A stretch of DNA of 64,000 nucleotides, taken from NCBI RefSeq assembly GCF_030408775.1, contig NZ_CP047210.1, forward strand, positions 372,001-436,000, given 5' to 3'. The DNA is from Corynebacterium fournieri. GTDB taxonomy: Bacteria; Actinomycetota; Actinomycetes; Mycobacteriales; Mycobacteriaceae. Every line of letters begins with the position of its first letter. The first letter of the stretch is position 1. The position numbers were made by a program, and so were the translations under genes. The notes beneath the pieces were generated by a model, which was not told the origin of the DNA, searched no databases, and saw only the letters and a program-made list of their open reading frames with translations. Of this stretch, positions 23,373-38,433 are shown one piece after another.

Positions 23373-24587
23373 ATGGCGAAGCTTTTGCCAACTACGCGCG
23401 CCCAGGTATCGGGCCACAAATTCATGCGCCGCCGGATGGAGCACGGCCTTGTCTTCGGCGACAGCCGCATGATCCACGACCCGTTGGCCGCGCGGCGGCG
23501 CGCGACGATTTTCGGCACCGCTGCGGTGGTCATGATCGCCGGGGTGATGGGGCTGTTCGCGTGGATGCGGCCGAATGCAGATCCGGGCGATGCGCCGATT
23601 TTCCGCGCGGCGGACGGCACGCTGTACGTCCGGGTGGGGCAGGCGGCGCATCCGGTGACGAACCTGGCCTCTGCGCGCCTGATTGCGGGTTCGGCGGCTG
23701 AACCCGCCCGCATCGGGGATGCGAACCTGGCGGCGATGCCGCGCGGGGTGCCGGTGGGCATCGTCGCGGCGCCGGGGATGTTCGCGCCGGAGAGCGCGCC
23801 GGATGCCAGCTGGTCGGTGTGCGGCGCGGACACCATCACTGTGGTGGCGGGGAGTGCGCCGGAGCCATTGCCGGACCACGCCGCCGCGTTGGCCGCCGAC
23901 GACTCCCGGGAGTGGCTGGTCACCGCGCAGGGCCGGCGCCTGCTGCCGGAGGAACACACCGCGCAGGGCCGAGTGCTGCGCCGCGCGCTGGGCATCACCC
24001 CGGACACGCCGCGGTGGACCCCGCCCGCGCAGGTGATCGCGGCGCTTCAAGAACTGCCGCCGGCGGCGTTGCCGGAGCAGCTGCCGGAGGTCATCGACGC
24101 CGACGGGCAGTCCTGGGCGCTGGCGGACGGGAAGGTCCAACCGTTGACCGACACCCAGCGCCGCATCCTCCTCGACGCCGGGGCGCAGGCGAACACCGCG
24201 AACCGGGCGGATCTGGCGGACTACCCGGACGGGGACAGGCAGCTGCGGCTGCCGCGGGAGCGCCCGGAGTGGGTCGATCCGCACACCGTGTGTGTCGACC
24301 AGGGCCGCGGCGGCGCGATCAACGACGAGGTGCCCGAGGGCATCGAGCTATCGGGAACTTCTGTGGCTGCCCGGTTCGCGGGGCTTGCGCACGGATCGGT
24401 CGGCGTGGATTCTGGTCACGGCTACCACGTGGTCTCCGCGAACGGCCTGCGCCACAGCGCCCCGGACGCCGCCGCGTTAGAAACTGTGGGTGCGGCGCAC
24501 GTGGAGCGGGTGCCGTGGGAGATTATTTCCCTCTTGCCGGAAGGCGCGGCGCTGACCCGCGAGCAGGCGCTTTCCGCCACCTATTAG
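23373..24587 (+). CDS. eccB: Type VII secretion protein EccB (ESX-4 type)
   Basis: EccB is a core membrane component of the ESX secretion apparatus with a large periplasmic domain. The 404-residue product begins MAKLLPTTRAQVSGHKFMRR, the classic EccB start, then has VFGDSRM and one membrane helix at about residues 44-65. The rest is periplasmic repeat-domain sequence. It is shorter than ESX-1/3/5 EccB. The ATG at 23373 follows GGGGGAGGGG. Its last 65 bases overlap the convergent mycP gene. Confidence 0.95.
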   Translation: MAKLLPTTRAQVSGHKFMRRRMEHGLVFGDSRMIHDPLAARRRATIFGTAAVVMIAGVMGLFAWMRPNADPGDAPIFRAADGTLYVRVGQAAHPVTNLASARLIAGSAAEPARIGDANLAAMPRGVPVGIVAAPGMFAPESAPDASWSVCGADTITVVAGSAPEPLPDHAAALAADDSREWLVTAQGRRLLPEEHTAQGRVLRRALGITPDTPRWTPPAQVIAALQELPPAALPEQLPEVIDADGQSWALADGKVQPLTDTQRRILLDAGAQANTANRADLADYPDGDRQLRLPRERPEWVDPHTVCVDQGRGGAINDEVPEGIELSGTSVAARFAGLAHGSVGVDSGHGYHVVSANGLRHSAPDAAALETVGAAHVERVPWEIISLLPEGAALTREQALSATY

Positions 24588-25659
24588 CGCCTGCGCGAAG
24601 CGCCACCGCAAGCGCGGCGCACCCGAGCGCGGCGCCCATGCACCACCCCAGCCGCCCCGCGGCGGGGTTGGACGTTTGGTCTGCCGCCTCCACTTGCAGC
24701 CTCGGGCGTTTATCCAGCTCCTGCGGGCTCAGCTGCGTCAGCGCCGCCATGGGGCTGACCGCCCCGCCGCCGGGCTGCGCGGCGGCGGTGATCAAGCCGC
24801 GCACGTGCGCCGGGCTGATGCCGGGGTAGCGCGACTGCAGCAGCGCGACGGTGCCGCTGACCACCGGGGCGGCGAAGCTGGTGCCCGTGTACGGATGCAC
24901 GCCGTCTTTGACCACGGTGCCCTCCGCCCACCCGCCGGGCGCGAGTGCCGCCGCAGCGGTGCCGGTAGCGGACAGCTCCGCGGGCAGGGAGTAGCTGGCG
25001 ACGGTGTGCGCGTCGGCACGGGCGGCGACGGCCAGCACGGTGGGGAAGTGGGCGGGAAAGACCTCAAAGCCCGGTTCGCAGTCGGGCCCGGCATTGCCGG
25101 CAGCGGCGACGACGACAGCACCCTGCTGTTCTGCGCGGTGGAGGGCGGCGGTGAGGCCGGAAGCGTCGAGACGCGAGGCGAACGCGGGCTCCAAGCAAGA
25201 CACCACGGAGATGTTGAGCACGCTGGCGCCTTCGTCGAGGGCGTTGTGGATGGCGTCGGTGAGGGTGTGCAGGTTGCCGGCGTCGACGTCGCGGTAGTGC
25301 GCGGAGGTTTGGCGCACCGAGATGATCTCCGCCTCCGGTGCGATGCCGAGGGTGCGCCCGGCGATGATGCCGGCGACGGCGGTGCCGTGGTTGTCGCAGT
25401 CCATCAGCGCGTCTGAGGCGACGAAGTCGCGGCCCGGCCGCAGATGCGCGATCTCCGGGTGGGGTGCAACACCGGTGTCGATCACAGCCACCCGCACCCC
25501 CGCTCCGGTGGAAAACCGCCGCAGCTCATCGGTCGCGGCATCCGCAGGGGGCTTATCCACGAGTGCCGGCACCGCACACGCCACATCCTGGGCGCCGGCG
25601 GGCGCAGGGGCGAGCGAGCACCCGAGCAGGGCAAGTGCAGGCAGCCAGCGCTTCATCAC
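24523..25659 (-). CDS. mycP: Mycosin, subtilisin-like serine protease of type VII secretion
   Basis: Mycosin is a membrane-anchored extracytoplasmic protease required for ESX complex stability. The 378-residue product has a signal segment (residues 1-23), the catalytic triad Asp61 (DTG), His91 (HGT) and Ser261 (GTSFAAP) with the oxyanion Asn189 (AAGN), and a C-terminal membrane helix near 337-357. A lipobox-like LLGC at residues 11-14 is odd for the family. It overlaps eccD by ATGA and eccB tail-to-tail. Confidence 0.95.
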   Translation of the reverse strand: MMKRWLPALALLGCSLAPAPAGAQDVACAVPALVDKPPADAATDELRRFSTGAGVRVAVIDTGVAPHPEIAHLRPGRDFVASDALMDCDNHGTAVAGIIAGRTLGIAPEAEIISVRQTSAHYRDVDAGNLHTLTDAIHNALDEGASVLNISVVSCLEPAFASRLDASGLTAALHRAEQQGAVVVAAAGNAGPDCEPGFEVFPAHFPTVLAVAARADAHTVASYSLPAELSATGTAAAALAPGGWAEGTVVKDGVHPYTGTSFAAPVVSGTVALLQSRYPGISPAHVRGLITAAAQPGGGAVSPMAALTQLSPQELDKRPRLQVEAADQTSNPAAGRLGWCMGAALGCAALAVALRAGANRWRKAPARGSAPRLPARGK

Positions 25660-26960
25660 AACCCCCGGATCATGTCGAACAGCCCGGTCAAATGGACCGC
25701 GAGCGGGATCACGGCGATGGTGGCGGCGATCTCTGCGCGCTCAAACCACACCACCGTCGTCGGCTCCAGGTCCGGCACGCGCGGCACCCAGGCGGCGGTG
25801 GACGCGGCAACGAGCGCGGCGAGTGCGGCCACCGCGATGCAGGCCGGGTGCCCTGTGCTTGCGGCCGCTGCCGCAGCGGCGACGACGGCGGAAAGCGCCA
25901 CCGCCGTCAAACACACCCGGGGCAGCGCCCAGTGGTGGCGCGACGCGTAGACCACCAGCGCACCCGCCACCCCGAGACAGAACGCGAACGCCCACACCCC
26001 GCCGGCGCGGCCCAACCACAAAAGCGCGGGCACACAGCAGACGGCGACGGCGCAGCAGATCGCCGCGGCGATGTCGGCGGCGACGCTGCTGCGCTCATCC
26101 ACGTCGTCCTGGTAGTCGTCGGAGCGGTCGAACTCCTCACCGGCGGTGGGCACCCGCGGCACCGTGAGCCCGGCCGCCCGAGTAGCCACTCCCGGCGCGG
26201 CCATCACTGCCAACACCCCGGCGAGCACCGTCAGTGCCGGTGCGGCCAGCGACCCAGGCAGCCACGCCCCGGCTGCCCCAGCGCCACCGAGTACGCCGAC
26301 GGCGGCGAAAAACGCCACCTGCGCTGCCCCGGCCAACCCCAGCGCCGCGCCGACGCCCACAGCCACCAGAGCCGCGAGCAGCCCGGCCAGCGCGCCGAAG
26401 CCGACGCTTGTTGCGCTCGCATCTGCGCCCACCACCCACGTGGCCGCGGCACCCCCAGCCAGCAGCGGCACCGGCACATACGCCAGGCGCGACGAGCCCG
26501 CCGCAGCCACCGTCAACGCCAACAGCGCGGTCGCAGCGAGCGCTGCCGGCCACGGCGCGACCACCCGCGCGAGCACCACTACGGCCGCAAGGCCCGCGAA
26601 AGTGGCCGCCGCATCCAGACCGCGCACCTGACGCGCCGACTGCGCCACAGAGGCCAGCGCGTCGGCGGCGTCGCGCACGACAGGCGGGGATGTCGGCTCT
26701 TGGGGATGCAGGGCGATCGTTGCGCCGTCGTAAAGCTTCAGCGCGTACAGCGGCGTGTGCATGTCCAACGGCGCCCCGCCGGCGGTGGCCGCCTGCCAGG
26801 GGCGGTGCACCTCCGGCAGCTCCACCAGCCGCGCAAGCTCCGGCAGCACCTCAGCCAGCGTGGACGACGTAGGAAGTGTCACGTCGATGTCGCGGTGGAA
26901 CGCGACGACGGACACGCGGACAGTAACGCGCACGACGTGGTGCGCAGACGTTGCAACCAA
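25656..26960 (-). CDS. eccD: Type VII secretion integral membrane protein EccD
   Basis: EccD forms the membrane vestibule of the ESX complex. The 434-residue product has an N-terminal ubiquitin-like domain (about residues 8-88; RVTVRVSVVAFHRDIDVTLP, LYDGATIAL) and about 11 hydrophobic helices from residue 110 onward. The TTG start at 26960 follows GGGGGAG; alternative internal GTG starts exist, so the N-terminus is uncertain. It is divergent from eccC and cotranscribed with mycP. Confidence 0.92.
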   Translation of the reverse strand: MVATSAHHVVRVTVRVSVVAFHRDIDVTLPTSSTLAEVLPELARLVELPEVHRPWQAATAGGAPLDMHTPLYALKLYDGATIALHPQEPTSPPVVRDAADALASVAQSARQVRGLDAAATFAGLAAVVVLARVVAPWPAALAATALLALTVAAAGSSRLAYVPVPLLAGGAAATWVVGADASATSVGFGALAGLLAALVAVGVGAALGLAGAAQVAFFAAVGVLGGAGAAGAWLPGSLAAPALTVLAGVLAVMAAPGVATRAAGLTVPRVPTAGEEFDRSDDYQDDVDERSSVAADIAAAICCAVAVCCVPALLWLGRAGGVWAFAFCLGVAGALVVYASRHHWALPRVCLTAVALSAVVAAAAAAASTGHPACIAVAALAALVAASTAAWVPRVPDLEPTTVVWFERAEIAATIAVIPLAVHLTGLFDMIRGL

Positions 26961-27088: not shown

Positions 27089-30000
27089 TTGCTCGGCCTC
27101 GACTACAACCACGTCCTCGCGCCCACCGTCGGCGCGCCCGACATCGCGCCGCCGCCGTCCGGTGCGCTTCGCGCCGAGCCCGTTCCCGCGGCGCAGAAGC
27201 AACAGCCGCTGCCGGTGGTGAAAATCCTGCTGCCGGTGGTGATGGTGGTTGCCCTCGGCGCGGTGATGGTGCTCATGGCGCTGTCCGGCCGCGCCGTGAG
27301 CCCGATGATGCTGATTTTTCCGCTGATGATGCTGTTTGGGCTGGCCGGGATGGTCAACCCGCAGGAGAAACAGGGCGATATCGACGAAACGCGCCGGGTG
27401 TATCTGCGCCACTTGGACGCGCTGGCGACAACGGCCCGCACCAACGCCGCCAAGCAGCGTACCCACGCTGCCACGCTGTACCCCGCGCCGGGCGAGCTGG
27501 TCGCGGCGGTGCCAGTAGAGCGGGTGTGGGAGCGCGCCGGCGCGCCGACCGTGCGGCTGGGGACCGGGGCGGGCGCGCTGTGCACCCCGGTAGACGTGGA
27601 CGACCCCGGCAGCCCCGAAGACCTCGACCCGGTGTGCGCGGTGAGCCTGCGCCGCACCGTCGCCGCGGTGAGCACGGTGCCGGGGATGCCGGTGCTCGTG
27701 CAGCTCGACGCCTTCGACGCCATCACGCTCGCCGGGCCCGCCGCGGCGGATGTGGCCCGCTCGATCGTGTGCCAGCTCGCCTTCTTCTACGGCCCGGAGC
27801 AGGTCAGCATCGACGCCCCGTTTGCGTGGGCGAAGTGGCTGCCGCACTCCCGCTCGGCGGCGGCGTTTCGCATCACGCTTGTCGACGGCCACAGGTCCGC
27901 CACCCCCACCGACGCCGATGTCGTGGTCGCCGTCCACGACGACCCGGATTTCTTCGTCGACCCGGACGCGTTCCACCTCGTGTGCGGCGAGACGCTGGAG
28001 GCGGTGACAGCCCAGGGCGCGGAAACGCTCGGGGCGCCGGACGCGTTTTCTGACGCGGAGGCGGAGTTCATCGCCCGCCACTTGGGCTTCTACCGCCGCC
28101 CGGAGACTACGGGCGAGGCGGGCGGAGACTTCCTGTCCATGCTGGGCGTTGTCGACGTCGACGCGCTAGATGCCCACACCATGTGGCCCGGCGTGCGCAA
28201 CAAGCTCACGGTGCCGATCGGCGCCACGCCCGACGGCGATCCGGTGTACCTGGACTTGAAGGAAGCGGCGCTCGGCGGCATGGGCCCGCACGGGCTGTGC
28301 ATCGGCGCGACCGGGTCCGGAAAATCCGAGCTGCTGCGCACCCTCGTGGTGGCGCTTGCAGTCACGCACTCGCCGGAGGAGCTGAACTTCGTGCTGGTGG
28401 ACTTCAAAGGCGGCGCGACGTTTCTGGGCTGCGAGCAGCTGCCGCACACTGCCGCGGTGATCACCAACCTCGAAGACGAGGCGGTGCTGGTGGAGCGCAT
28501 GTTCGACGCCATCTCGGGCGAGATGCAGCGCCGCCAGGAACTGCTGCGCGCCGCCGGCAACTTCGCCAACATCACGGACTACACCAAGGCGGGGCACACG
28601 CTGGCCTCGCTTGTCATCGTGGTCGACGAGTTCACCGAGCTGCTCACCCAGCACCCGCACTTCGCGGACCTGTTCGTGGCGGTGGGCCGGCTGGGCCGCT
28701 CGCTGGGGGTGCACCTGCTGCTCGCCTCGCAGCGCTTGGAGGAGGGGAAGCTGCGCGGGCTGGACAGCCACCTGTCGTACCGCATCGGGTTGAAAACGTT
28801 TTCTGCAGGCGAGTCGCGCCAAGTCCTCGGGGTGCCGGACGCCTACGAGTTGCCCGGCGAGCCCGGCTCCGGATACCTCAAGGCGGGCATGGACCTTGTC
28901 CGGTTCCGCGCCGCGTACGTCTCCGGGCCGCTCACCCGCACGGTGTACGCGCACCAGGACCAGCAGCACGTGCGGCTGTTTACCGGCGACGAGGTGGAGC
29001 CCGCGCCCGCCTCGTACGTGGAGGAGGACCGCTCCACCACACTGTTGGACGCGGTGGTGGACAAGGCCCGCGAGGTGGCGCAGGTGCGCGGCATGCGCGC
29101 GCACCAGGTGTGGCTGCCGCCGCTGCCCGAGCGCATCCCGCTGTCGCAGACCGACGGCGCGCTCGGGCTGATCGACGAGCCCTTCAAGCAGCGCCAAACA
29201 CCGTTTCACCTGGACTTGTCGGCCGCCGGCGGGCACGTGGCCATCGCGGGCGGGCCGCAGACTGGCAAGACGATAGCGGTGCGCGGCATCGTGGCCACAC
29301 AGCTGGGCGCGGGCTATGCGGTCTACGTCATCGGCGACGTGCCGGAGCTCGAGTTACTGCCCCACGTCGCGGGTGTGGCCAGCATGAAAGACACCGAACG
29401 CACCCGCCGCGTCATCGACGAGGTCGCCTCGTTGCTTGATGCGCCACGCCCCGCCATCTTGGTCGTCGACGGCTGGCACGCCTTGGACGAGGATCTGCGC
29501 GATCTGCTCGCCCGCATCGCCTCCGAAGGCCCGGACGCGGGCATCCACCTGGTGGTGACCACCCAGCGCTGGAGCGCGATCCGCCCGAACGTGCGCGACC
29601 TCATCGGCACCCGCATCGAGCTGCGGCTCACGGAGCCGATGGACTCCTTGATCGACCGCAAGCAGCAGGAAAAACTCCCCGCGATCGCCGGTCGCGGCCT
29701 GACGCCGGACGGCAAAACGGTGCAGCTGGCCTTCACCAGCGGCGAGGACATCGCGCACCTGGCGGCGCACACCGACCAGGCCCCGGTGGAGAGGTTGCGG
29801 GTGCTGCCGGAGGCCGTCGCCACGCACACGCTTGTCGACGGCCAAAGGATCCCCCTCGGCATCGGCGGACCCGCCCTGGAACCGGTGTACTCGGCCGGGC
29901 ACGTGCTGGTCATCGGCGCCGGCGGCTGCGGCAAATCCACCTTCATCGCCAGCACCATCGCCGCAGTGGAGCACATGGGACGCGCCGCCGCGCGCATGGT

Positions 30001-30499
30001 CATCTTCGACCCGCGCCGAGCCCACCTCGGGCGCGCCGACGAGGACATGGTGGCGGCGTATGCCGCGTCGTCCAGCTCGATTGTCGAAGCCGCGAAATCA
30101 CTGGCCGTGACACTGTCCTCGCGCCTGCCCGGTGCGGATGTCACCCCGCAGCAGCTGCGCGAGCGCTCCTGGTGGCACGGCCCGGAGCTGTACCTGATCA
30201 TCGACGATTACGAACTCGTCGGCGAGGAACCCCTGCGCCCGCTCGCGGAATTTCTGCCGCACGCGCGCGACATCGGCCTGCACGTCGTGGCCACCCGCAA
30301 ATTCGGCGGTGTTTCGCGCGCGCTGTTCGGGCCGTTTCTCACTGCGCTGAAAGACCAGCACCCTGACGTGCTGATCATGGACGGCACCCGCGACGAAGGC
30401 GCCCTGTTCGGCGTGCGGCCCACCGGGCAGCAACCGGGTCGGGCCACCTGGGTCCACGGCGAGCCGCGCGGCACGATTCAACTGCCGGAGGCGTCATGA
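27089..30499 (+). CDS. eccC: Type VII secretion ATPase EccC (undivided)
   Basis: EccC is the FtsK/SpoIIIE-type motor that recruits WXG100 substrates. The 1136-residue product has two N-terminal membrane helices (about 43-64 and 70-88), then three ATPase domains with P-loops GATGSGKSE (near 405), GGPQTGKTI (near 721) and GAGGCGKST (near 943). The undivided form matches ESX-4, whereas ESX-1 uses a split EccCa/EccCb. The start is TTG at 27089 behind AGGGGGGAAA. It overlaps the next gene by ATGA. The 128-base gap to eccD must hold divergent promoters. Confidence 0.95.
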   Translation: MLGLDYNHVLAPTVGAPDIAPPPSGALRAEPVPAAQKQQPLPVVKILLPVVMVVALGAVMVLMALSGRAVSPMMLIFPLMMLFGLAGMVNPQEKQGDIDETRRVYLRHLDALATTARTNAAKQRTHAATLYPAPGELVAAVPVERVWERAGAPTVRLGTGAGALCTPVDVDDPGSPEDLDPVCAVSLRRTVAAVSTVPGMPVLVQLDAFDAITLAGPAAADVARSIVCQLAFFYGPEQVSIDAPFAWAKWLPHSRSAAAFRITLVDGHRSATPTDADVVVAVHDDPDFFVDPDAFHLVCGETLEAVTAQGAETLGAPDAFSDAEAEFIARHLGFYRRPETTGEAGGDFLSMLGVVDVDALDAHTMWPGVRNKLTVPIGATPDGDPVYLDLKEAALGGMGPHGLCIGATGSGKSELLRTLVVALAVTHSPEELNFVLVDFKGGATFLGCEQLPHTAAVITNLEDEAVLVERMFDAISGEMQRRQELLRAAGNFANITDYTKAGHTLASLVIVVDEFTELLTQHPHFADLFVAVGRLGRSLGVHLLLASQRLEEGKLRGLDSHLSYRIGLKTFSAGESRQVLGVPDAYELPGEPGSGYLKAGMDLVRFRAAYVSGPLTRTVYAHQDQQHVRLFTGDEVEPAPASYVEEDRSTTLLDAVVDKAREVAQVRGMRAHQVWLPPLPERIPLSQTDGALGLIDEPFKQRQTPFHLDLSAAGGHVAIAGGPQTGKTIAVRGIVATQLGAGYAVYVIGDVPELELLPHVAGVASMKDTERTRRVIDEVASLLDAPRPAILVVDGWHALDEDLRDLLARIASEGPDAGIHLVVTTQRWSAIRPNVRDLIGTRIELRLTEPMDSLIDRKQQEKLPAIAGRGLTPDGKTVQLAFTSGEDIAHLAAHTDQAPVERLRVLPEAVATHTLVDGQRIPLGIGGPALEPVYSAGHVLVIGAGGCGKSTFIASTIAAVEHMGRAAARMVIFDPRRAHLGRADEDMVAAYAASSSSIVEAAKSLAVTLSSRLPGADVTPQQLRERSWWHGPELYLIIDDYELVGEEPLRPLAEFLPHARDIGLHVVATRKFGGVSRALFGPFLTALKDQHPDVLIMDGTRDEGALFGVRPTGQQPGRATWVHGEPRGTIQLPEAS

Positions 30500-31386
30500 C
30501 CGCACTGCGCATCACAGCCACCGACGCCTCCACCGTGATCACCGGTGCGGCCAACATCCACCGCTTCGACGCGCCGTCGAGCAGGGAGATCGCCGGCACC
30601 GTGCGTAGCGTGCTCGGCCCCGACCCGGCGGGCGCGCAGGTGCACATCGCCGCCGACCCGCAGCGCCTGCACGAACTCGCCCACGCGCTGGCCGACTACG
30701 ACATCGAGCTGAGCACCGAAACTCTCGGGCCTGTGCCTGACGACGCACCTTCGGACCCCCTTCGCCCCGCACCAGAGGCGCCTGAGCCGGGCGGAAACGG
30801 CACGTGGATCGTCGCCGGGGTGGTCGCGCTGGTCGCCCTGGCGTGCGCCGGGGTGATCTGGGGACTGACCAGCAACGCACAGCCCGAGCCCGCTGCCGAA
30901 GCCGCCCCGGAGGAACCTCCGGAAACAGCAGAAGAACAGGCGCCGGAAAAGACTCCGGAGCAGGAGGAAGCGGAGCTGCCGTCGATAAGCGTCGCGCGCG
31001 ACGGGCTCAGCGTGCAGCTTCCCGCAGGATTCACGCTCGACGCCGACGGCGACGGGTGGCGCGCCACCGGAGACGATCCGAACTTCCGCCTCCACATGGA
31101 CATAGAACGCCTCTACCAGCTGCCCGCGCGCACCATGGCAGAGCAACTGATCGCAGACATCGAGGCCGACCCGGAAGTCGAACTCGTGGACACCGACGGG
31201 GTCGCTGTGACCTACCTCGAGCGCGCCGCCGACGGCTCCCAGTCGCTCTGGAAGACATGGCCCAACGGCGCGGTGCAACTGTTCGTGGGCTGCCACACCC
31301 GCAGCGAGCCGACCGTCGTGCAACGCGCCACCTGCCGCATGGCCATGGAATCCGCCGAATTTCAGGAGGCTGACGTGGGGCCATAA
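30496..31386 (+). CDS. Type VII secretion-associated membrane protein (Rv3446c-like)
   Basis: The 296-residue product has an N-terminal cytosolic domain, one membrane helix near residues 98-120 (WIVAGVVALVALACAGVIWG), an acidic Pro/Glu linker (about 125-160) and a C-terminal extracytoplasmic domain. Position and layout match the type VII secretion-associated protein found between eccC and the esx pair in ESX-4 loci. Its biochemical role is unknown. It overlaps eccC by four bases. Confidence 0.85.
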   Translation: MTALRITATDASTVITGAANIHRFDAPSSREIAGTVRSVLGPDPAGAQVHIAADPQRLHELAHALADYDIELSTETLGPVPDDAPSDPLRPAPEAPEPGGNGTWIVAGVVALVALACAGVIWGLTSNAQPEPAAEAAPEEPPETAEEQAPEKTPEQEEAELPSISVARDGLSVQLPAGFTLDADGDGWRATGDDPNFRLHMDIERLYQLPARTMAEQLIADIEADPEVELVDTDGVAVTYLERAADGSQSLWKTWPNGAVQLFVGCHTRSEPTVVQRATCRMAMESAEFQEADVGP

Positions 31387-31459: not shown

Positions 31460-31486
31460 CCCAGCACACAACACGAGGGGGAAATT

Positions 31487-31798
31487 ATGGAGCAGTTCGC
31501 AACCGAAGCTGAGGTCATGCGCGCCGCTGCAGACCGCACCGACGACACCAACGCGGACGTCAACCGCGAAATCGACCGCATCCAGCAGGTCGCCGAAGCC
31601 ACCCGCGGCTACTGGGTGGGCAACGCCCAGCGCAGCTTCGACGAGCTCATGGTCCGCTACGACGACGCTCAACGCCGACTCTCAGAAGCGCTCAGCGCCA
31701 TCGCCGTGAACATCCGCGACAACGCCAAGCACTACGAGACCACCGACGCCAACAACACCGACAGCCTCCGCCAGATCGCCGGCGGGCTCGCACTCTAA
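31487..31798 (+). CDS. WXG100 protein, CFP-10/EsxU-type partner
   Basis: This is a small secreted helical-hairpin protein. The 103-residue product has the WxG turn as YWVG near residue 44 and a YETTD segment after the second helix. That matches the YxxxD/E secretion signal that EccC recognises on the CFP-10-like partner. I chose the ATG at 31487 with GAGGGGGAAA upstream; a longer frame to 31394 lacks family similarity. It should form a 1:1 dimer with the next product. Confidence 0.92.
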   Translation: MEQFATEAEVMRAAADRTDDTNADVNREIDRIQQVAEATRGYWVGNAQRSFDELMVRYDDAQRRLSEALSAIAVNIRDNAKHYETTDANNTDSLRQIAGGLAL

Positions 31799-31808
31799 GG
31801 GGAACACC

Positions 31809-32093
31809 ATGCAGATCAAGTACGACTTCGCCCAAATCGCCGGCGCGGCAGAAGATATGCGCGCATCCGCCTCGCGCATCAACGGCGATCTGGCAGAGCT
31901 CAAGCAGATGCTCCAGCCCATGGCCCAGACCTGGGAAGGTACCGCAGCCGCCGCCTACCAGGCGCACCAGGCCAAGTGGGACCAGGCAGCAGAGGACCTC
32001 AACCAGATCCTCAACCAGATCGCGAACACCGTTGAAGACGGCAACTCCACCATGCTCGCCGTCAACAACGCCGCCGCAAACAGCTGGGGCTAA
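31809..32093 (+). CDS. WXG100 protein, ESAT-6/EsxT-type
   Basis: The 94-residue product is a helical hairpin with WEG near residue 42 (MAQTWEGTAAAAYQAHQAKW). It lacks an evident YxxxD/E tail, as expected for the ESAT-6-like half of the pair. It starts 10 bases after its partner, with AAGGGG before the ATG. The order eccC, associated gene, CFP-10-like, ESAT-6-like, rplM is that of mycobacterial ESX-4. Confidence 0.93.
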   Translation: MQIKYDFAQIAGAAEDMRASASRINGDLAELKQMLQPMAQTWEGTAAAAYQAHQAKWDQAAEDLNQILNQIANTVEDGNSTMLAVNNAAANSWG

Positions 32094-32829: not shown

Positions 32830-33377
32830 TGACCGAGCCGAACAACTTCGACAACACCGCCGCTGAAGAGCTGGGCACCGACGTCGACGCCGCAACCGCC
32901 GCGACCGAGGAGTTCAACTACACCATCGGCGACGCAATCGCACCCGAGGCCGACGCTGCCGAGGAGACCGTTGAGGCTGCTCCGCTGCACGAGGGCCCGA
33001 TCCAGACCGTCGGTCGCCGTAAGCGCGCCATTGCCCGCGTGACCGTCGTCGAGGGCGAGGGCAAGATCACTGTCAACGGCCGCGAGTTCGAGGACTACTT
33101 CCCGAACAAGCTGCACCAGCAGGACATCCTCACCCCGCTGACCCTGCTCGAGCGCGAGGGCCAGTTCGACATCAAGGCCAACATCTCCGGTGGCGGCCCG
33201 ACCGGCCAGTCCGGTGCGCTGCGTCTGGCTATCGCCCGTGCGCTGAACATCTACAACCCGGCTGAGCGCCAGGCCCTGAAGAAGGCCGGCCTGCTCACCC
33301 GTGACGCCCGTGCCGTGGAGCGCAAGAAGGCTGGTCTGCACAAGGCCCGTCGCGCACCGCAATACTCCAAGCGTTAA
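32829..33377 (+). CDS. rpsI: 30S ribosomal protein S9 with acidic N-terminal extension
   Basis: S9 reaches into the P site with its basic C-terminal tail, here ending RRAPQYSKR. The conserved core starts near residue 57 ([19 protein letters not shown]). The first 55 or so residues are an acidic, Ala/Glu-rich extension, as in other corynebacteria and mycobacteria. The 182-residue length is therefore longer than the 130 of E. coli S9. Confidence 0.97.
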
Positions 33378-33400
33378 TCGCAGGTTTACGCGCGCTTTTG

Positions 33401-33439
33401 CGCCGTCGCCCGTGTTCGGGCGGCGGCGTTTTGCGTTTT
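33401..33439 (+). terminator. Terminator after rpsI
   Basis: A 12-bp stem pairs 33401-33412 with 33417-33428 around TGTT with one G:U, followed by TTTTGCGTTTT. It abuts the ancestral stop of the convergent HNH remnant. Confidence 0.9.
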
Positions 33440-34185
33440 CTAGTGTGGTCCGAAGAGTTGGTCGAGGGCTCCGCGGGTGGTGTTGCGGATGTGGTGTCCG
33501 TGTGGGGAGATCCATACGGGGGCACCCCGGTCATGGTGGTGCCGTCGGTGAGCACAAGTTCGATGTCGTCGCCGCCACCGTCAAGGATGCGGGTGTGCGC
33601 ATCGATGGGCACCATCACGATCGGCCTTGGTGCGGCGGCGACAACCCCGCCGGTTGTGCCGTCCAGGATGCGCCAGAACTCCTCTTCCATCTGGGCTGCG
33701 GCGGGCAGGGTGGGGTCGATGTGTTGGCGCAGGCGGTGCTCTAAGTCTGCGGCGTTGCGGTCGGTGGTGTCGATGGTGATGCGTGCCCGGCCGTTGCGGG
33801 ATCCGGAAAACGCCACTTGTCTGCGCGCGGGCGTGTCTTCTTTGGGGATGAGGTGGCGGGCGGCGCGCTCAATGGCGCGGTACCCGCCTTCAACGTTGAG
33901 CAGTTCCAGGCGTAGCCGCCAGCGTTCAGCAGCGGACTTCACACCAGCGAGGCGGCGTTCGATCAGGGCGAGCTCGTCCAAGGAGAAGCCTTGCGCCCGT
34001 TGTAAGGCGGTGGCTTGCTTGCGGGTGAACGTGGTTTTCCCGTAGTAGGTCTCGCGCAGCCGGCCGAACGCACGTGCTTTGTCCGGTGCGAAGCCCGCGG
34101 CGAGGGCAGCGTCAACGACGAAGTCGGCCAAGGTTGCTAGCGCCTTGGTCGACATCGCTTCGATGAGTGCTGCGAACGGGTTCAT
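33440..34185 (-). pseudogene. DUF222/HNH endonuclease gene with the HNH domain deleted
   Basis: From the ATG at 34185 (MNPFAALIEAM) the frame encodes a DUF222-type N-terminal part typical of corynebacterial HNH proteins, up to ELVLTDGTTMTG near 33537. In intact relatives an HNH motif with Cys and His pairs follows. Here the sequence jumps, in a shifted frame, to PVWISPHGHHIRN...GALDQLFGPH and a TAG at 33442-33440, which looks like the normal C-terminus. The open frame itself reads on out of phase to 33295, into rpsI. The likely event is an internal deletion that removed the catalytic region and changed frame. Confidence 0.75.
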
Positions 34186-34327
34186 GGCCCATACGCTAAA
34201 CCAACCGCAACCCCACCCGGACCCAGCCTGTGGAATTCGCGCCACACCCCCTGTGGATAACCGCTAACCTCCCAGTTAGAACGGGGTGGCGGAACGAACG
34301 TCGACAAGCACATGCATAATTGTGCGC

Positions 34328-35671
34328 ATGACTCGATTGTTCGGAACTGACGGTGTGCGCGGCCTGGCTAACGAGGCCCTCACCGCATCACTTGCCCTCA
34401 AGCTCGGTGCCGCCGCCGCAACGGTGCTGACCAAAGACCGCGGCTCTGAAAAGCGCCGCCCGATCGCGCTGATCGGCCGCGACCCGCGCGTCTCCGGCGA
34501 AATGCTCGCCGCCGCGATGGCCGCCGGAATGGCATCCAAAGGCGTGGATGTGCTGCGCGTCGGCGTCATCCCCACCCCGGGCCTGGCGTATCTCACCGAC
34601 GACTACGGCGCCGATATCGGTGTGATGATCTCCGCGTCGCACAACCCCATGCCGGACAACGGCATTAAGTTCTTCGCCGCCGGCGGCAAGAAGCTGCCGG
34701 ACGACATCGAGGACGAGATCGAGCGCGCCATGGCGGTGCTCGAGGAGACCGGCCCGACCGGCACCGCCATCGGCCGCGTGATCGAAGAAGCACCCGACGC
34801 CCAGGAGCGCTACCTGGCCCACCTCAAGGAAGCAGTCGGCGAGAGCCTGAGCGGCATCAAGGTCGTGGTCGACTGCGCCAACGGCGCCGCCTCCGAGGTC
34901 GCCCCGAAGGCCTACGCCGCCGCTGGTGCCGAGGTCACCGCGATCCACAACACCCCGAACGCCTACAACATCAACGACGGCTCCGGCTCCACCCATATGG
35001 AGCAGATCCAGGCCGCCGTGGTCGAGCACGGCGCGGACCTGGGCCTGGCGCACGACGGCGACGCCGACCGCTGCCTGGCCGTGGACGCGCAGGGCAACAT
35101 CGTCGACGGCGACCAGATCATGGCGATCTTGGCCACCGGCATGAAAGAGTCCAACTCGCTGAAGGACAACACGCTGGTCGCCACCGTGATGAGCAACCTG
35201 GGTCTGAAGCTTGCCATGCAGGACGAGGGCATCGAGTTGCGTCAGACGAAGGTGGGCGACCGCTACGTGCTCGAGGAGCTGAACCGCGGCGACTTCTCGC
35301 TCGGCGGCGAGCAGTCTGGCCACATCGTCGTGCCAGCGCACGCCACTACCGGCGACGGTGTCCTTTCCGGCCTGATGCTCATGCAGCGCATGGCGGAGAC
35401 CGGCCAGACGCTTGCGGAGCTGGCCAACGTGATGACGGTGCTGCCGCAGACGCTGATCAACGTGCCGGTGTCGAACAAGGCGCTGATTTTGGAGGACGCC
35501 TCCGTTAAGGACGCGATCGCGGAAGCTGAGGCTGAGCTCGGCGATTCCGGCCGTGTGCTGCTGCGCCCGTCCGGCACCGAGGAGCTGTTCCGCGTCATGG
35601 TGGAAGCTGCGGAGGAGGAGCAGGCCCGCAAGGTTGCCGGTCGCCTCGCGGCGGTTGTCGCTGCGGTGTAG
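34328..35671 (+). CDS. glmM: Phosphoglucosamine mutase
   Basis: GlmM converts glucosamine-6-phosphate to glucosamine-1-phosphate on the way to UDP-GlcNAc and peptidoglycan. The 447-residue product has the phosphoserine loop ISASHNP (Ser near 104), the magnesium loop DGDADR, and the C-terminal [15 protein letters not shown] chose the ATG at 34328: it begins at [19 protein letters not shown] hexamer at 34314-34319 ends eight bases before it, so the mRNA may be leaderless. Confidence 0.96.
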
Positions 35672-35780: not shown

Positions 35781-36095
35781 ATGAGACATGCCGGGGCACT
35801 AGATATCGATGTGGATGCGGTGCGCAGGACATACACGGAAGCGATCGCGGCGTATCGCGGGGCGGCGCGCGATCTCGAGTGTAACCGGCCGGTGGTCGAC
35901 GCCGCTGCGTTCGGTGCGGGGTTTGCGCGTGAGGGGCAGCGCATCGTGGATGCGTTGGAGGCGCTGCATTCCACGTCGCAGCGCTTTCTTGCCGCGCGTG
36001 GACAGCAGTGGGGGCAGGTGCTGGCGCTGAGCGACGCCACGGTGGCCGCTGACGCCTGTTCCGCCGACGCGTTGGGCGGGGTGATGGACGCATGA
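35781..36095 (+). CDS. Small helical protein, possible ESX secretion-associated (EspC-like)
   Basis: The 104-residue product has no membrane segment and looks mainly helical. It starts [20 protein letters not shown] and has two cysteines. Length and helix pattern recall EspC/DUF2580 or WXG100-like proteins, but there is no WxG motif; that link is an inference. GGGGGTGGG precedes the ATG. It is the first gene of a three-gene operon and overlaps the next gene by ATGA. I do not recognise it with certainty. Confidence 0.65.
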
Positions 36096-37267
36096 TGGCA
36101 GCGGTCAAAGACGACGTCGAGGGGCTGGTCCGTGCCGTCGACGTCGCGCCCGAGGTAGGGCCGTCGCAACGCGCCGCGGTCCACGGGCTTGCTGGCGAAC
36201 TGCTGGAGCTGGTCGGGCAGGCCGACGGGTTGGATCTCAGCGCGTTTCTTTCCGCCGGCGTGCGCCTCGCCGCCGGCTGCGAGCGGCCGGAAACGCAGGC
36301 GCGGGACTGCTCGTGCGACGACAGCGCGTGGTTCGACGAGGTCGGCATCCGCGAGCGCGAGCGTAGCGACGAGGTCAGCGAAAGCGAGCACTTCGATCGC
36401 GTGCAGCAGGTGGGCACGAGCATCGGGCAGTGCGGCGAGGCGCTCAGGGCGATTGTGGACACGGCGGAAACGGCCGTGCGCGCGTTGCTCGAGCCGGCGA
36501 AGCGGATGCTCGACGCGGTGTTGAATTGCGGCATTGTGCAGCTGGTGCAGCCGGCTGTGGAGGTGGTCATCGAGGCGTTGCGCTCGGCGCGCGAGACCGC
36601 CAGCGACCGCAATTGCGTGATCAAGGAGTGTTTGGGCGAGGTGGCCTCGCGCGCGGATGCCGCCGCGGTTGAGCAGCCTGCGCCGCCGGTGGAGTTTGAG
36701 CGGCAGGGGCGTTCGCTTTGCGACGTCGCCACGCGCCCCGCCGCCACCGCCACCGAGGCCGGTGCTCGGGCGGGGTTGGACGTGTCGTTGGATGCGACGC
36801 TTCGCATCGAGCCGGCCGCGCTGGTGGGCACGCTCGGCGCGGCCGGTGCAGCTGTGGCGCTGGGGGCGCTGGAGTGCATCGCCGCGGCGCAGCAGGAGTG
36901 CGAGCCGGAACCGGAGTGCGAGCCAGAGCCGCAGCCCGAGTGCGAGCCGGAACCCGAGCCTGAGTGCGAGCCGGAACCCGAGCCCGAGTGCGAGCCGGAA
37001 CCCGAGCCTGAGTGCGAGCCTGAGCCCGAGCCTGAGCCGGAACCCGAGCCCGAGTGCGAACCGGAACCCGAGCCGGTGCCCGCCGAGGACGGTGTGATCA
37101 CACCGCCGCCGGAGCTTGCGCAGGTGGAGGAGCCGGCGCCGCCGCCGAAGAAACTGGAGGCGGGCACGCAACCGGCGCAGGCTGGTGCGATCGATGAGGT
37201 AGGAAGTAACGGCGCCGCAGGGGCCGAGGCTGATCCGTGGGCAATGAAGAAAGCAGGGCAGTGGTAG
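36092..37267 (+). CDS. Cysteine-rich protein with Cys-Glu-Pro repeat
   Basis: I do not recognise this 391-residue protein. Residues 1-45 and about 95-200 are predicted helical. Nine cysteines are scattered before a repeat (about residues 269-329) built from ECEPEPEP units with seven more cysteines. A short hydrophobic stretch (about 245-268, [21 protein letters not shown]) precedes the repeat, and the tail is Pro/Ala-rich. No signal peptide is seen. The overlap with the upstream small helical gene suggests a complex, possibly a type VII secretion substrate or a surface protein. Confidence 0.7.
36896..37075 (+). repeat. Tandem Glu-Cys-Glu-Pro-Glu-Pro coding repeat
   Basis: Seven cysteine-bearing units of 6-14 codons, mostly GAG TGC GAG CCG GAA CCC GAG CC(N), lie in tandem inside the preceding gene. 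Repeat DNA of this kind can change copy number by slippage in multiples of 24 bases without changing frame. Confidence 0.8.
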
Positions 37268-37269
37268 CG

Positions 37270-37548
37270 ATGGATTTTGAAGAGTTCGTGAACCAGTACC
37301 AGCGGCGCACCGCGAAGCGGATGGCGGATTTTGAGGCGCTGATGAAAGAAACGCAGCAGAAGATGGAAAGGACCGCCGAGCATCACGCGCGGGCGCGCGA
37401 GACCATGCCTCGGCAGCCGGTGACGGTGCCGCGCGGGGACTACAGCATGCCGCGTCCCCGCCGCAGTTCGGCACGAAAGGCACAGAAGCAGCAGATCCAG
37501 GCGGTGCTGCGCGCCATCGGCCCGAATGGAGAAAACCCCGTCGCGTAA
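37270..37548 (+). CDS. Small basic coiled-coil-like protein
   Basis: The 92-residue product begins [21 protein letters not shown] with a charged helix to about residue 45, then a Pro/Arg-rich stretch and another helix. I recognise no family. I chose the ATG at 37270, three bases after the preceding stop; a GTG at 37237 would overlap that gene by 31 bases. It is the third gene of the operon, and its stop codon lies inside a 12-bp hairpin. Confidence 0.6.
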
Positions 37549-37578: not shown

Positions 37579-38433
37579 TTAGAACAGGGAAAAGGCTGCG
37601 TTGTCGCGCGCCAGGCCGGCGGCCTTGGACAGGTCCTCGCCGGTCAGCGACTCGATGCCGGAGCCTTCCGCGTCCACCTCGGAGTAGGAGGAGTAGGCCT
37701 TGTCGCCGTCGAGCTGATGCAGCAGGTAGCCCACCAGCAGGCCGCGGATAGTCTCCTGCAGGCCGCGGTCGGATTTGCCCAGGCCGAGGACGCGCTTGAC
37801 CATGTTGTCTTCGGAGAAGCTTTGCTGGTCGCCCTTCTTCGGGGCGCGGTAGACCACTTCGCCGGCCCAGTTGTAGGCCAGCTTGGCGGGGTTGCCGGGG
37901 TCGAACAGCGAGTCGCCGTCTTCGCCCGGGCCGACCACCATGCCGGGGACGAACAGGTTGCGCGCCGCCTCAACGGCGGACGGCGCCACGTTTGCCGGGT
38001 AGACCGCAGCCACGGCCTTCGCCTTGGGGTTGTCCACCGCCGCCAGCACTGCTGCGCCGCCGCCCATGCCGTGGCCGACGATGCCCAGTTTGCCGGGGGA
38101 GATGGAGATGTTGCCGTTGCCCAGCCGCACACCGGCGAGGATCTGCATCGCGGTTTCCAGGTCGGCGGCGAACCCCGGGTGGTCGGTTTTGAACCCGGTT
38201 TCCGTGGCCGGCGCGGCGACGGCGATGCCCCAGCTGGCCAGGTGGCGCAGGGTGCCTTCGTAGGCGTCGATGTCCTTGAGCCAGTCGTGGCCGAACGCGA
38301 CGCCGGGCAGGTTCTTGCCCTCGGCGGGGGTGTAGACCTTGCCGGGCAGCCCGGTGTATCCCAGGTCGCCTTCCAGGACGCGGTGCGGGCCGCGCTTGGA
38401 CAGGTCGGAGAGTTTCTTCAGCTTCGCAGACAC
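37579..38433 (-). CDS. Alpha/beta-hydrolase-fold protein lacking the nucleophile
   Basis: The 284-residue product aligns in outline with dienelactone-hydrolase or cutinase-like proteins: FGHDWLKD near residue 48, a [13 protein letters not shown] strand, and a nucleophile-elbow segment [14 protein letters not shown]. The elbow should be Gly-x-Ser-x-Gly but reads GHGMG, so the catalytic Ser is Gly. No clear triad His is seen in the C-terminal part. It may be a pseudoenzyme or structural protein. No signal peptide is seen. It is convergent with the Cys-repeat operon. Confidence 0.8.

What the first reader, a model, noticed from the sequence alone, without database searches (positions are those of the whole stretch)
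35781..37548. Unassigned three-gene operon with a Cys-Glu-Pro repeat protein next to glmM
Three tightly coupled genes encode a 104-residue helical protein, a 391-residue cysteine-rich repeat protein and a 92-residue basic helical protein. I recognise none of them. The first recalls EspC/WXG100-type secretion-associated proteins, and G-rich Shine-Dalgarno sequences like those before the ESX-4 genes precede it. The set could be a type VII secretion substrate/chaperone cassette or a surface metal- or redox-active complex.
Basis: partly seen in the sequence, partly recalled or inferred. Interest (0 to 1): 0.7.

Follow-up and report, generated by a model that had tools for sequence, protein, structure and literature searches.

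The report
Overlooked ESX-4 secretion-partner gene cassette
Three small genes beside a cell-wall gene in Corynebacterium look like an overlooked second set of cargo or partner proteins for the ancient ESX-4 (type VII) secretion machine encoded a few genes away, found in all Corynebacterium genomes sampled and, as two genes, in mycobacteria.

Summary
P1 (35781-36095), P2 (36092-37267) and P3 (37270-37548) match no curated family. They lie between glmM and a convergent PETase-like hydrolase; of 61 Corynebacterium genomes P1 was found in 61, P2 in 60, P3 in 56. An ESX-4 locus lies upstream across rplM-rpsI-glmM. Homology runs by chain: P1 matches first-gene proteins of mycobacteria and family f14 in the same place; three of three mycobacterial P1 pass Pfam's EspC cut-off, one of two f14 P1 and one f14 P2 pass WXG100's. 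Outside the genus the cassette goes with eccC near glmM (27 both, 6 cassette only, 4 eccC only, 37 neither), clustered by family. Corynebacterial P2 has a helical domain, a variable Pro/Glu/Cys tail and a C-terminal aromatic residue in 60 of 60, as EsxT has. By gene order the mycobacterial pair is Rv3440c-Rv3439c; a review calls Rv3439c 'Ppr2', a two-hybrid partner of protease Rip1. Best reading: a second ESX-4 substrate/partner set. Export is inferred. The metal/redox idea is not supported.

The parts
35781..36095 (+). P1: 104-aa helical hairpin, divergent EspC/WXG100-superfamily protein (position of mycobacterial Rv3440c)
36092..37267 (+). P2: 391-aa protein; helical N-domain (about residues 1-195), hydrophobic Gly/Ala-rich segment (about 241-262), Cys/Glu/Pro tail, extreme C-terminus KKAGQW (position of Rv3439c)
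36914..37074 (+). 24-bp tandem repeat encoding the Cys-Glu-Pro stretch inside P2; low complexity of the window and its closest relatives
37270..37548 (+). P3: 92-aa basic, helix-like protein, the lowest dN/dS of the three
34331..35671 (+). glmM, upstream neighbour (glmM found in 61 of 61 genomes)
37579..38433 (-). PETase/dienelactone-hydrolase-like protein, convergent downstream neighbour (position of Rv3438)
23373..24587 (+). eccB of ESX-4 (249.9 bits, cut-off 154)
24523..25659 (-). mycosin (MycP) of ESX-4 (just below the NCBIfam cut-off, 259.4 against 278.75 bits)
25656..26960 (-). eccD of ESX-4
27089..30499 (+). eccC of ESX-4
30496..31386 (+). Rv3446c-like T7SS-associated protein
31484..31798 (+). 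WXG100 protein (EsxU-like by position)
31809..32093 (+). WXG100 protein (EsxT-like by position), ends NSWG

Best explanation
P1-P2-P3 is a second substrate/partner cassette of the ESX-4 type VII secretion system, separated from the esx-4 locus by rplM-rpsI-glmM. P1 is a divergent EspC/WXG100-type helical hairpin; P2 carries a divergent WXG100-type helical domain at its N-terminus. I propose that P1 pairs with that domain (as EsxB pairs with EsxA, or PE with PPE), that EccC recognises C-terminal signals (P1's hydrophobic-xxx-Asp/Glu helix face and an aromatic C-terminal tail, here P2's KAGQW, as in EsxT), and that the pair is moved across the inner membrane. P2's Pro/Glu/Cys tail then acts as an extended spacer in the wall or at the mycomembrane. 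P3, basic where P2 is acidic, would be a small escort. Shown: genes, conservation, the homology chain, linkage to ESX-4, the conserved C-termini. Inferred: the dimer, export, the tail's role, P3's role.
For: Conservation: P1 in 61, P2 in 60, P3 in 56 of 61 Corynebacterium genomes (window); 9 of 9 P1s not used in the P1 model were found at E <= 5e-5. Homology (hhalign probability): P1 Coryne-f14 94%, P1 Coryne-myco 86%, P1 f14-EsxU 97% over 102 columns, P1 myco-EsxT 82%, P2 myco-P2 f14 95.5% over 217 columns, P2 f14-EsxT/EsxU 93%, P2 Coryne-P2 f14 49%; helical control P3: 1.8% or less against the eight other profiles. Pfam: 3 of 3 mycobacterial P1 pass EspC (34.7-40.1 bits, cut-off 23.5); one of two f14 P1 (28.6) and one f14 P2 (29.6) pass WXG100 (27.3). 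The f14 P1 model finds the WXG100 gene before esxT at 1.4e-7, reversed ORFs at best at 0.026. Signal: YxxxD/E in 16 of 16 f14 and 12 of 13 mycobacterial P1; in 47 aligned corynebacterial P1, D/E at that place in 47, a hydrophobic residue seven places on in 47, hydrophobic in the Tyr place in 39 (Tyr itself in 2). C-termini: aromatic residue within the last three of P2 in 60 of 60 Corynebacterium (Trp 59, Phe 1); Trp or Phe within the last four of EsxT in 41 of 41, against an aromatic residue in 4 of 27 EsxU. Linkage: 27 both, 6 cassette only, 4 eccC only, 37 neither, of 74 stretches.
Against: The window's P1 and P2 have no significant hit to a T7SS family. Direct hhalign is weak: P1 Coryne-EsxU 25%, P1 Coryne-EsxT 3.5%, P1 myco-EsxU 4%, P2 Coryne-EsxT/EsxU under 1%, P2 Coryne-P2 myco 7%, P1 against P2 profiles under 5% throughout. 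First-gene proteins of L157, L181 and L163 fall below both Pfam cut-offs (16.2, 15.0 bits, no hit). P1 lacks the WXG motif, and 45 of 47 corynebacterial P1 lack the strict Tyr of YxxxD/E. Structure searches are not specific. The linkage is clustered by family; and 26 of the 37 'neither' genomes hold an EccC homologue elsewhere, so the cassette goes with eccC beside rplM-glmM, not with type VII secretion as such (whether those genomes hold the cassette elsewhere was not searched). Reversed ORFs reach 8e-5 with the mycobacterial P1 model and 2.2e-4 with the f14 P2 model, so matches near those values carry little. In 28 of 50 P2 the hydrophobic segment could be a membrane anchor, which would fit retention. 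The distances between genes use the nearest start codon, which favours tight coupling. Four of 27 EsxU and 5 of 46 corynebacterial P1 also have an aromatic residue in the last four.
Confidence: 0.6

Rival explanations
1. P2 is not secreted but is a membrane-anchored accessory of ESX-4: cytosolic N-domain bound to P1, one membrane pass at about residues 241-262, and a Glu/Pro stalk outside, like the Pro-rich stalk of TonB (recalled), ending in a docking tail.
For: Hydrophobic 19-residue segment with mean hydropathy of at least 1.6 in 28 of 50 corynebacterial P2; weak compositional matches of the tail to TonB (E 0.37) and to an acidic repeat protein.
Against: 22 of 50 fall below 1.6; the Gly-rich segment in mycobacterial P2 is less hydrophobic by eye.
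Confidence: 0.18
2. The pair works outside secretion, as a regulator of the site-2 protease Rip1: Rv3439c (Ppr2) binds the Rip1 PDZ domain and its corynebacterial orthologue does the same.
For: A review reports Rv3439c as Ppr2 from a yeast two-hybrid screen with the Rip1 PDZ domain (PMC6963305, passage); extreme C-terminus of P2 kept within Corynebacterium and within the mycobacterial P2 read.
Against: One two-hybrid report seen only through a review; the C-terminal sequences differ between Corynebacterium and mycobacteria; does not account for the linkage to ESX-4 or P1's homology.
Confidence: 0.07
3. P1/P3 are dedicated chaperones for EsxU/EsxT or for EccC, with nothing of the cassette leaving the cell.
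For: P2 net negative and P3 net positive in 41 of 50 loci (two of the 50 had no P3 in that set); ESX-4 lacks an EspG gene (recalled).
Against: P1 carries substrate-type C-terminal features; the P3 model finds nothing at E <= 1 in the 19 non-Corynebacterium f1 stretches, so P3 at least is dispensable there.
Confidence: 0.08
4. A surface metal- or redox-active protein complex built on the cysteines.
For: Many cysteines (16 in P2); a WXG100 effector of the single C. glutamicum T7SS binds Fe3+ (PMC12607788, abstract and passages).
Against: Tail cysteines vary from 0 to 19 in 50 P2; no metal or redox family match.
Confidence: 0.04

Closest known systems
EspC family (PF10824) and WXG100 superfamily (EsxT/EsxU, EsxA/EsxB)
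   Same: About 100 residues, helical hairpin model, invariant Gly near the turn, acidic position of the C-terminal helix signal, an ESX-4 locus close by; same-position proteins of relatives pass the Pfam cut-offs.
   Different: No WXG; Tyr of YxxxD/E lost in 45 of 47 corynebacterial P1; the partner is a long tailed protein, not a second 100-mer.
Mycobacterial Rv3440c-Rv3439c (Ppr2), by gene order
   Same: Same place and orientation between glmM and the hydrolase; P1 homologous by profile (86%), P2 through f14 (loci L061-L070).
   Different: No P3 match; the P2 tail lacks the Cys-Glu-Pro repeat and ends ADELPQVG-like instead of KAGxW. Direct P2 Coryne-P2 myco comparison is only 7%. Identity with the Rv numbers rests on gene order and numbering, not on a sequence read here.
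PE/PPE, EspB-type or CpnT/LXG-type T7SS proteins (WXG-like domain plus long C-terminal part, with small partners; recalled)
   Same: Small helical partner gene followed by a large protein with a WXG-like domain in f14.
   Different: The C-terminal part is low-complexity with a short conserved end; no toxin or enzyme domain found.

Membership tests
EspC family PF10824 | Score above Pfam's gathering cut-off (23.5 bits) | tested here: not met
   Window P1: no Pfam family at E <= 10. Same-position proteins from three mycobacterial loci: 35.5, 34.7, 40.1 bits.
WXG100 superfamily PF06013 | W-x-G motif in the turn | tested here: not met
   Gly invariant in 76 of 76 aligned P1 (47, 13, 16), but no W two places before it.
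WXG100 superfamily PF06013 | Profile homology to bona fide members | tested here: inconclusive
   Direct P1 Coryne-EsxU 25%, -EsxT 3.5%; by chain P1 Coryne-P1 f14 94% and P1 f14-EsxU 97%; the Coryne P1 model hits EsxU at about 4e-4 in three of seven named loci with EsxU.
WXG100 superfamily PF06013 | Antiparallel helical hairpin | tested here: inconclusive
T7SS substrates | C-terminal YxxxD/E | tested here: not met
   2 of 47 corynebacterial P1, not the window's; 12 of 13 mycobacterial and 16 of 16 f14 P1.
T7SS substrates | Extended pattern HxxxD/ExxhxxxH (PMC3935865, passages) | tested here: inconclusive
   Of 47 aligned corynebacterial P1: D/E 47, last hydrophobic 47, first hydrophobic 39; the window's P1 has Thr there; the middle position was not counted.
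T7SS substrates | EccC-dependent export | not testable with these tools
   Needs a secretion assay.
WXG100 domain in P2 | Score above PF06013 cut-off (27.3 bits) | tested here: not met
   Window P2 no WXG100 hit; one f14 P2 29.6 bits; two mycobacterial P2 18.8 and 11.6 bits.
CpnT/LXG-type toxin | C-terminal toxin domain | tested here: not met
   Only low-complexity matches in P2.
Metal-binding or redox Cys-repeat protein | Conserved cysteines | tested here: not met
   0-19 tail cysteines in 50 P2.

The most novel reading that the evidence does not exclude
ESX-4, regarded as the ancestral ESX system, exports P2 (the Ppr2/Rv3439c lineage) only as far as the periplasm, where its conserved C-terminus binds the PDZ domain of the site-2 protease Rip1. 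A type VII system would then feed an envelope-stress signalling pathway rather than deliver an effector. This would explain how a protein without a Sec signal reaches an extracytoplasmic PDZ domain (side of the PDZ domain recalled; absence of a Sec signal judged by eye).
Probability: 0.1. Interest if true: 0.85.

Novelty: new variant of a known kind. Interest (0 to 1): 0.58.

Why it matters
ESX-4 is regarded as the ancestral ESX system (PMC9401124, passage). The passages I saw name EsxU and EsxT (or ExsI, a WXG100 protein) as substrates encoded at the locus and describe the locus as ending with them (PMC9401124, PMC12607788, PMC4572677; PMC11791044 figure legend only); other ESX-4 links, such as CpnT trafficking and heme use through PPE proteins, I saw in listings only. 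A cassette found in all 61 Corynebacterium genomes sampled, with partner-protein homology, gives an easily tested candidate for what ESX-4 handles, in the laboratory species C. glutamicum, and offers a link to an orphan mycobacterial protein already named as a Rip1 partner.

Full report
What is there. The window lies in a 2.39-Mb genome whose near relatives are Corynebacterium. Between glmM and a convergent PETase-like hydrolase lie three genes on the + strand: P1 (104 aa), P2 (391 aa) and P3 (92 aa), with a 4-base overlap and a 2-base gap. Pfam and NCBIfam hold nothing above a cut-off for them; P2's tail gives low-complexity matches. Upstream, across rplM, rpsI and glmM, is an ESX-4 locus: EccB, EccD, EccC, Rv3446c-like and two WXG100 proteins above NCBIfam cut-offs, mycosin just below its own.

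Are they genes. Close relatives keep the frames under purifying selection: dN/dS 0.21-0.28 for P1 (3 relatives), 0.15-0.24 for P2 residues 1-200 (3) and 0.10 for P3 (2). The antisense ORFs of 544 and 583 aa shrink to at most 341-488 open codons in five relatives.

Conservation in the genus. glmM was found in 61 of 61 genomes sampled. After it, models of P1, P2 and P3 found 55, 55 and 51 of 60 (the window's genome apart). Most of these loci had served to build the models, so the fair number is that 9 of 9 P1s not used in the P1 model were found at E <= 5e-5; one of them (G013) is an ORF of only 63 aa. The other five genomes carry 6-12 kb of extra DNA after glmM; beyond it P1 was found in 5 of 5, P2 in 4, P3 in 4 and the hydrolase in 5. 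With the window: P1 61, P2 60, P3 56 of 61. The hydrolase is convergent in 55 of 55 and 5 of 5. eccC passed 1e-60 in 60 of 61; in the last, eccC-like segments are present. Within the genus co-occurrence is therefore uninformative.

Beyond the genus. In mycobacteria P1 and P2 fill the same gap; the P3 model has no match at E <= 1 in the 19 non-Corynebacterium stretches of family f1. In family f14 all three positions are filled, with a longer P2. I took 74 stretches of up to 20 kb around glmM from non-Corynebacterium genomes of the order. Scoring P1 or P2 at E <= 1e-4 and eccC at 1e-15: both 27, cassette only 6, eccC only 4, neither 37 (Fisher p 3e-10). The pattern follows families (in f4 one of 17 has eccC and none the cassette; 20 of 20 genomes of other families have neither), so the p-value overstates independence. 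The six cassette-only genomes hold an EccC homologue elsewhere; but so do 26 of the 37 'neither' genomes (types of ESX not determined). The cassette thus goes with an eccC beside rplM-glmM, not with any type VII system, and its presence elsewhere in the 'neither' genomes was not searched. Of the four eccC-only stretches one ends 1.3 kb after glmM, and one (L163) holds a P1/P2-like pair by eye whose second protein scores 21.3 bits with WXG100, below the cut-off, and whose first has no hit.

Homology of P1 and P2. The window's proteins have no direct family match, so the case is a chain. hhalign probabilities (single-pair E-values) are: P1 Coryne-P1 f14 94%, P1 Coryne-P1 myco 86%, P1 myco-P1 f14 96%, P1 f14-EsxU 97% over 102 columns, P1 f14-EsxT 82%, P1 myco-EsxT 82%, P2 myco-P2 f14 95.5%, P2 f14-EsxT and -EsxU 93%, P2 myco-EsxT 25% and -EsxU 30%, P2 Coryne-P2 f14 49%. 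Weak: P1 Coryne-EsxU 25%, P1 Coryne-EsxT 3.5%, P1 myco-EsxU 4%, P2 Coryne-P2 myco 7%, P2 Coryne-EsxT/EsxU under 1%, P1 against P2 under 5%. The helical P3 profile as control gives 1.8% or less with the eight other profiles. Pfam agrees for relatives: three of three mycobacterial P1 pass EspC; one f14 P1 passes WXG100 and the other lies under both cut-offs (23.2 against 23.5 for EspC; 22.8 against 27.3 for WXG100); one f14 P2 passes WXG100, two mycobacterial P2 do not; a further Corynebacterium P1 has no hit. First-gene proteins of L157 and L181 also stay below (16.2 and 15.0 bits). Reversed ORFs as control reach 0.026 with the f14 P1 model (WXG100 gene before esxT 1.4e-7) and nothing at 10 with the Coryne model, but 8e-5 with the mycobacterial P1 model and 2.2e-4 with the f14 P2 model (WXG100 gene 3.5e-7).

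Signals. I aligned 47 of the 61 corynebacterial P1 with 13 mycobacterial and 16 f14 P1. A Gly near the turn is invariant (76 of 76). YxxxD/E stands in 16 of 16 f14 and 12 of 13 mycobacterial P1. In Corynebacterium the acidic residue is kept in 47 of 47 and a hydrophobic residue seven places on in 47 of 47, but Tyr in only 2; V, I, L or F stands there in 37 and Thr or Ala in 8, the window having Thr. This is close to the extended pattern described for WXG100 proteins (PMC3935865, passages). Corynebacterial P2, whose tail diverges freely, ends RKAGQW-like: an aromatic residue in the last three of 60 of 60 (Trp 59, Phe 1). EsxT has Trp or Phe in its last four residues in 34 of 34 stretches and 7 of 7 named loci; EsxU has an aromatic residue there in 4 of 20 and 0 of 7, corynebacterial P1 in 5 of 46; of 20 third-gene proteins (19 of f14, one of f1) 19 include Trp in the last four. 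EccC's third ATPase domain is known to bind the C-terminus of EsxB, ending in Phe (PMC6954902, passages). I infer, without proof, that these tails serve the same purpose.

Structure. P1 models as a hairpin of a 24-residue and a long helix (pLDDT 84.8; 14 sequences), with 10 WXG100/PE entries among the 50 listed, tied with ESCRT-III and other hairpins. P2 residues 1-212 model as a helical bundle (pLDDT 83.8) with only general helical matches. Neither decides membership.

Tail. The Cys-Glu-Pro repeat is a 24-bp tandem array. In 50 P2 the tail holds 0-19 cysteines, mean 9; 28 of 50 have a segment of hydropathy 1.6 or more; the net charge of P2 is under -5 in 49, and P3 is net positive in 41 (two of the 50 had no P3 in that set). 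This fits an extended spacer, with or without membrane insertion, better than a metal centre.

Names. Rv3441c is glmM (PMC3414508, search listing). By numbering and orientation Rv3440c and Rv3439c are P1 and P2 and Rv3438 the hydrolase; no M. tuberculosis sequence was read. A review gives Rv3439c as Ppr2, found by two-hybrid with the Rip1 PDZ domain (PMC6963305, passage).

Known or new. The single T7SS of C. glutamicum is reported functional and secretes the WXG100 protein ExsI; that study looked at two WXG100 genes (PMC12607788, abstract, section 8 and passages). The ESX-4 passages I saw end the locus at esxU/esxT. The literature searches, with capped lists, showed no link of this cassette to ESX-4 (see Tried and rejected). 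I rate it a new variant of a known kind: WXG100-superfamily partner proteins with an unusual tailed member, probably overlooked because housekeeping genes separate them from the machine.

Noticed in passing
window 33295-34245 (-): 316-aa ORF on the other strand between rpsI and glmM, no Pfam family at E <= 1; very short matches near the rpsI end in a few relatives.
   Followed up: partly
L236-L240 (genomes G055, G001, G039, G034, G026): 6-12 kb of extra DNA between glmM and the cassette in 5 of 60 Corynebacterium genomes; content not examined.
   Followed up: partly
L176 (+523 and +4034 from glmM), L193 (+109 and +3870): Two f14 genomes have two P2-like ORFs after glmM, a possible expansion of the cassette.
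   Followed up: no
third genes after P2 in L176-L193 and L157: Trp within the last four residues behind an acidic, Pro-rich stretch (19 of 20).
   Followed up: partly
EsxT orthologues, window 31809-32093 and relatives: Trp or Phe within the last four residues in 41 of 41 EsxT read.
   Followed up: partly
L213 and L214 (family f15), about 5-6 kb after glmM, minus strand: Weak P1-model hits (4e-4, 9e-4) in stretches without eccC; possibly another WXG100-type gene.
   Followed up: no
window 37579-38433 and relatives: The PETase-like hydrolase is a constant convergent neighbour of the cassette (55 of 55 plus 5 of 5 corynebacterial loci), reason unknown.
   Followed up: partly
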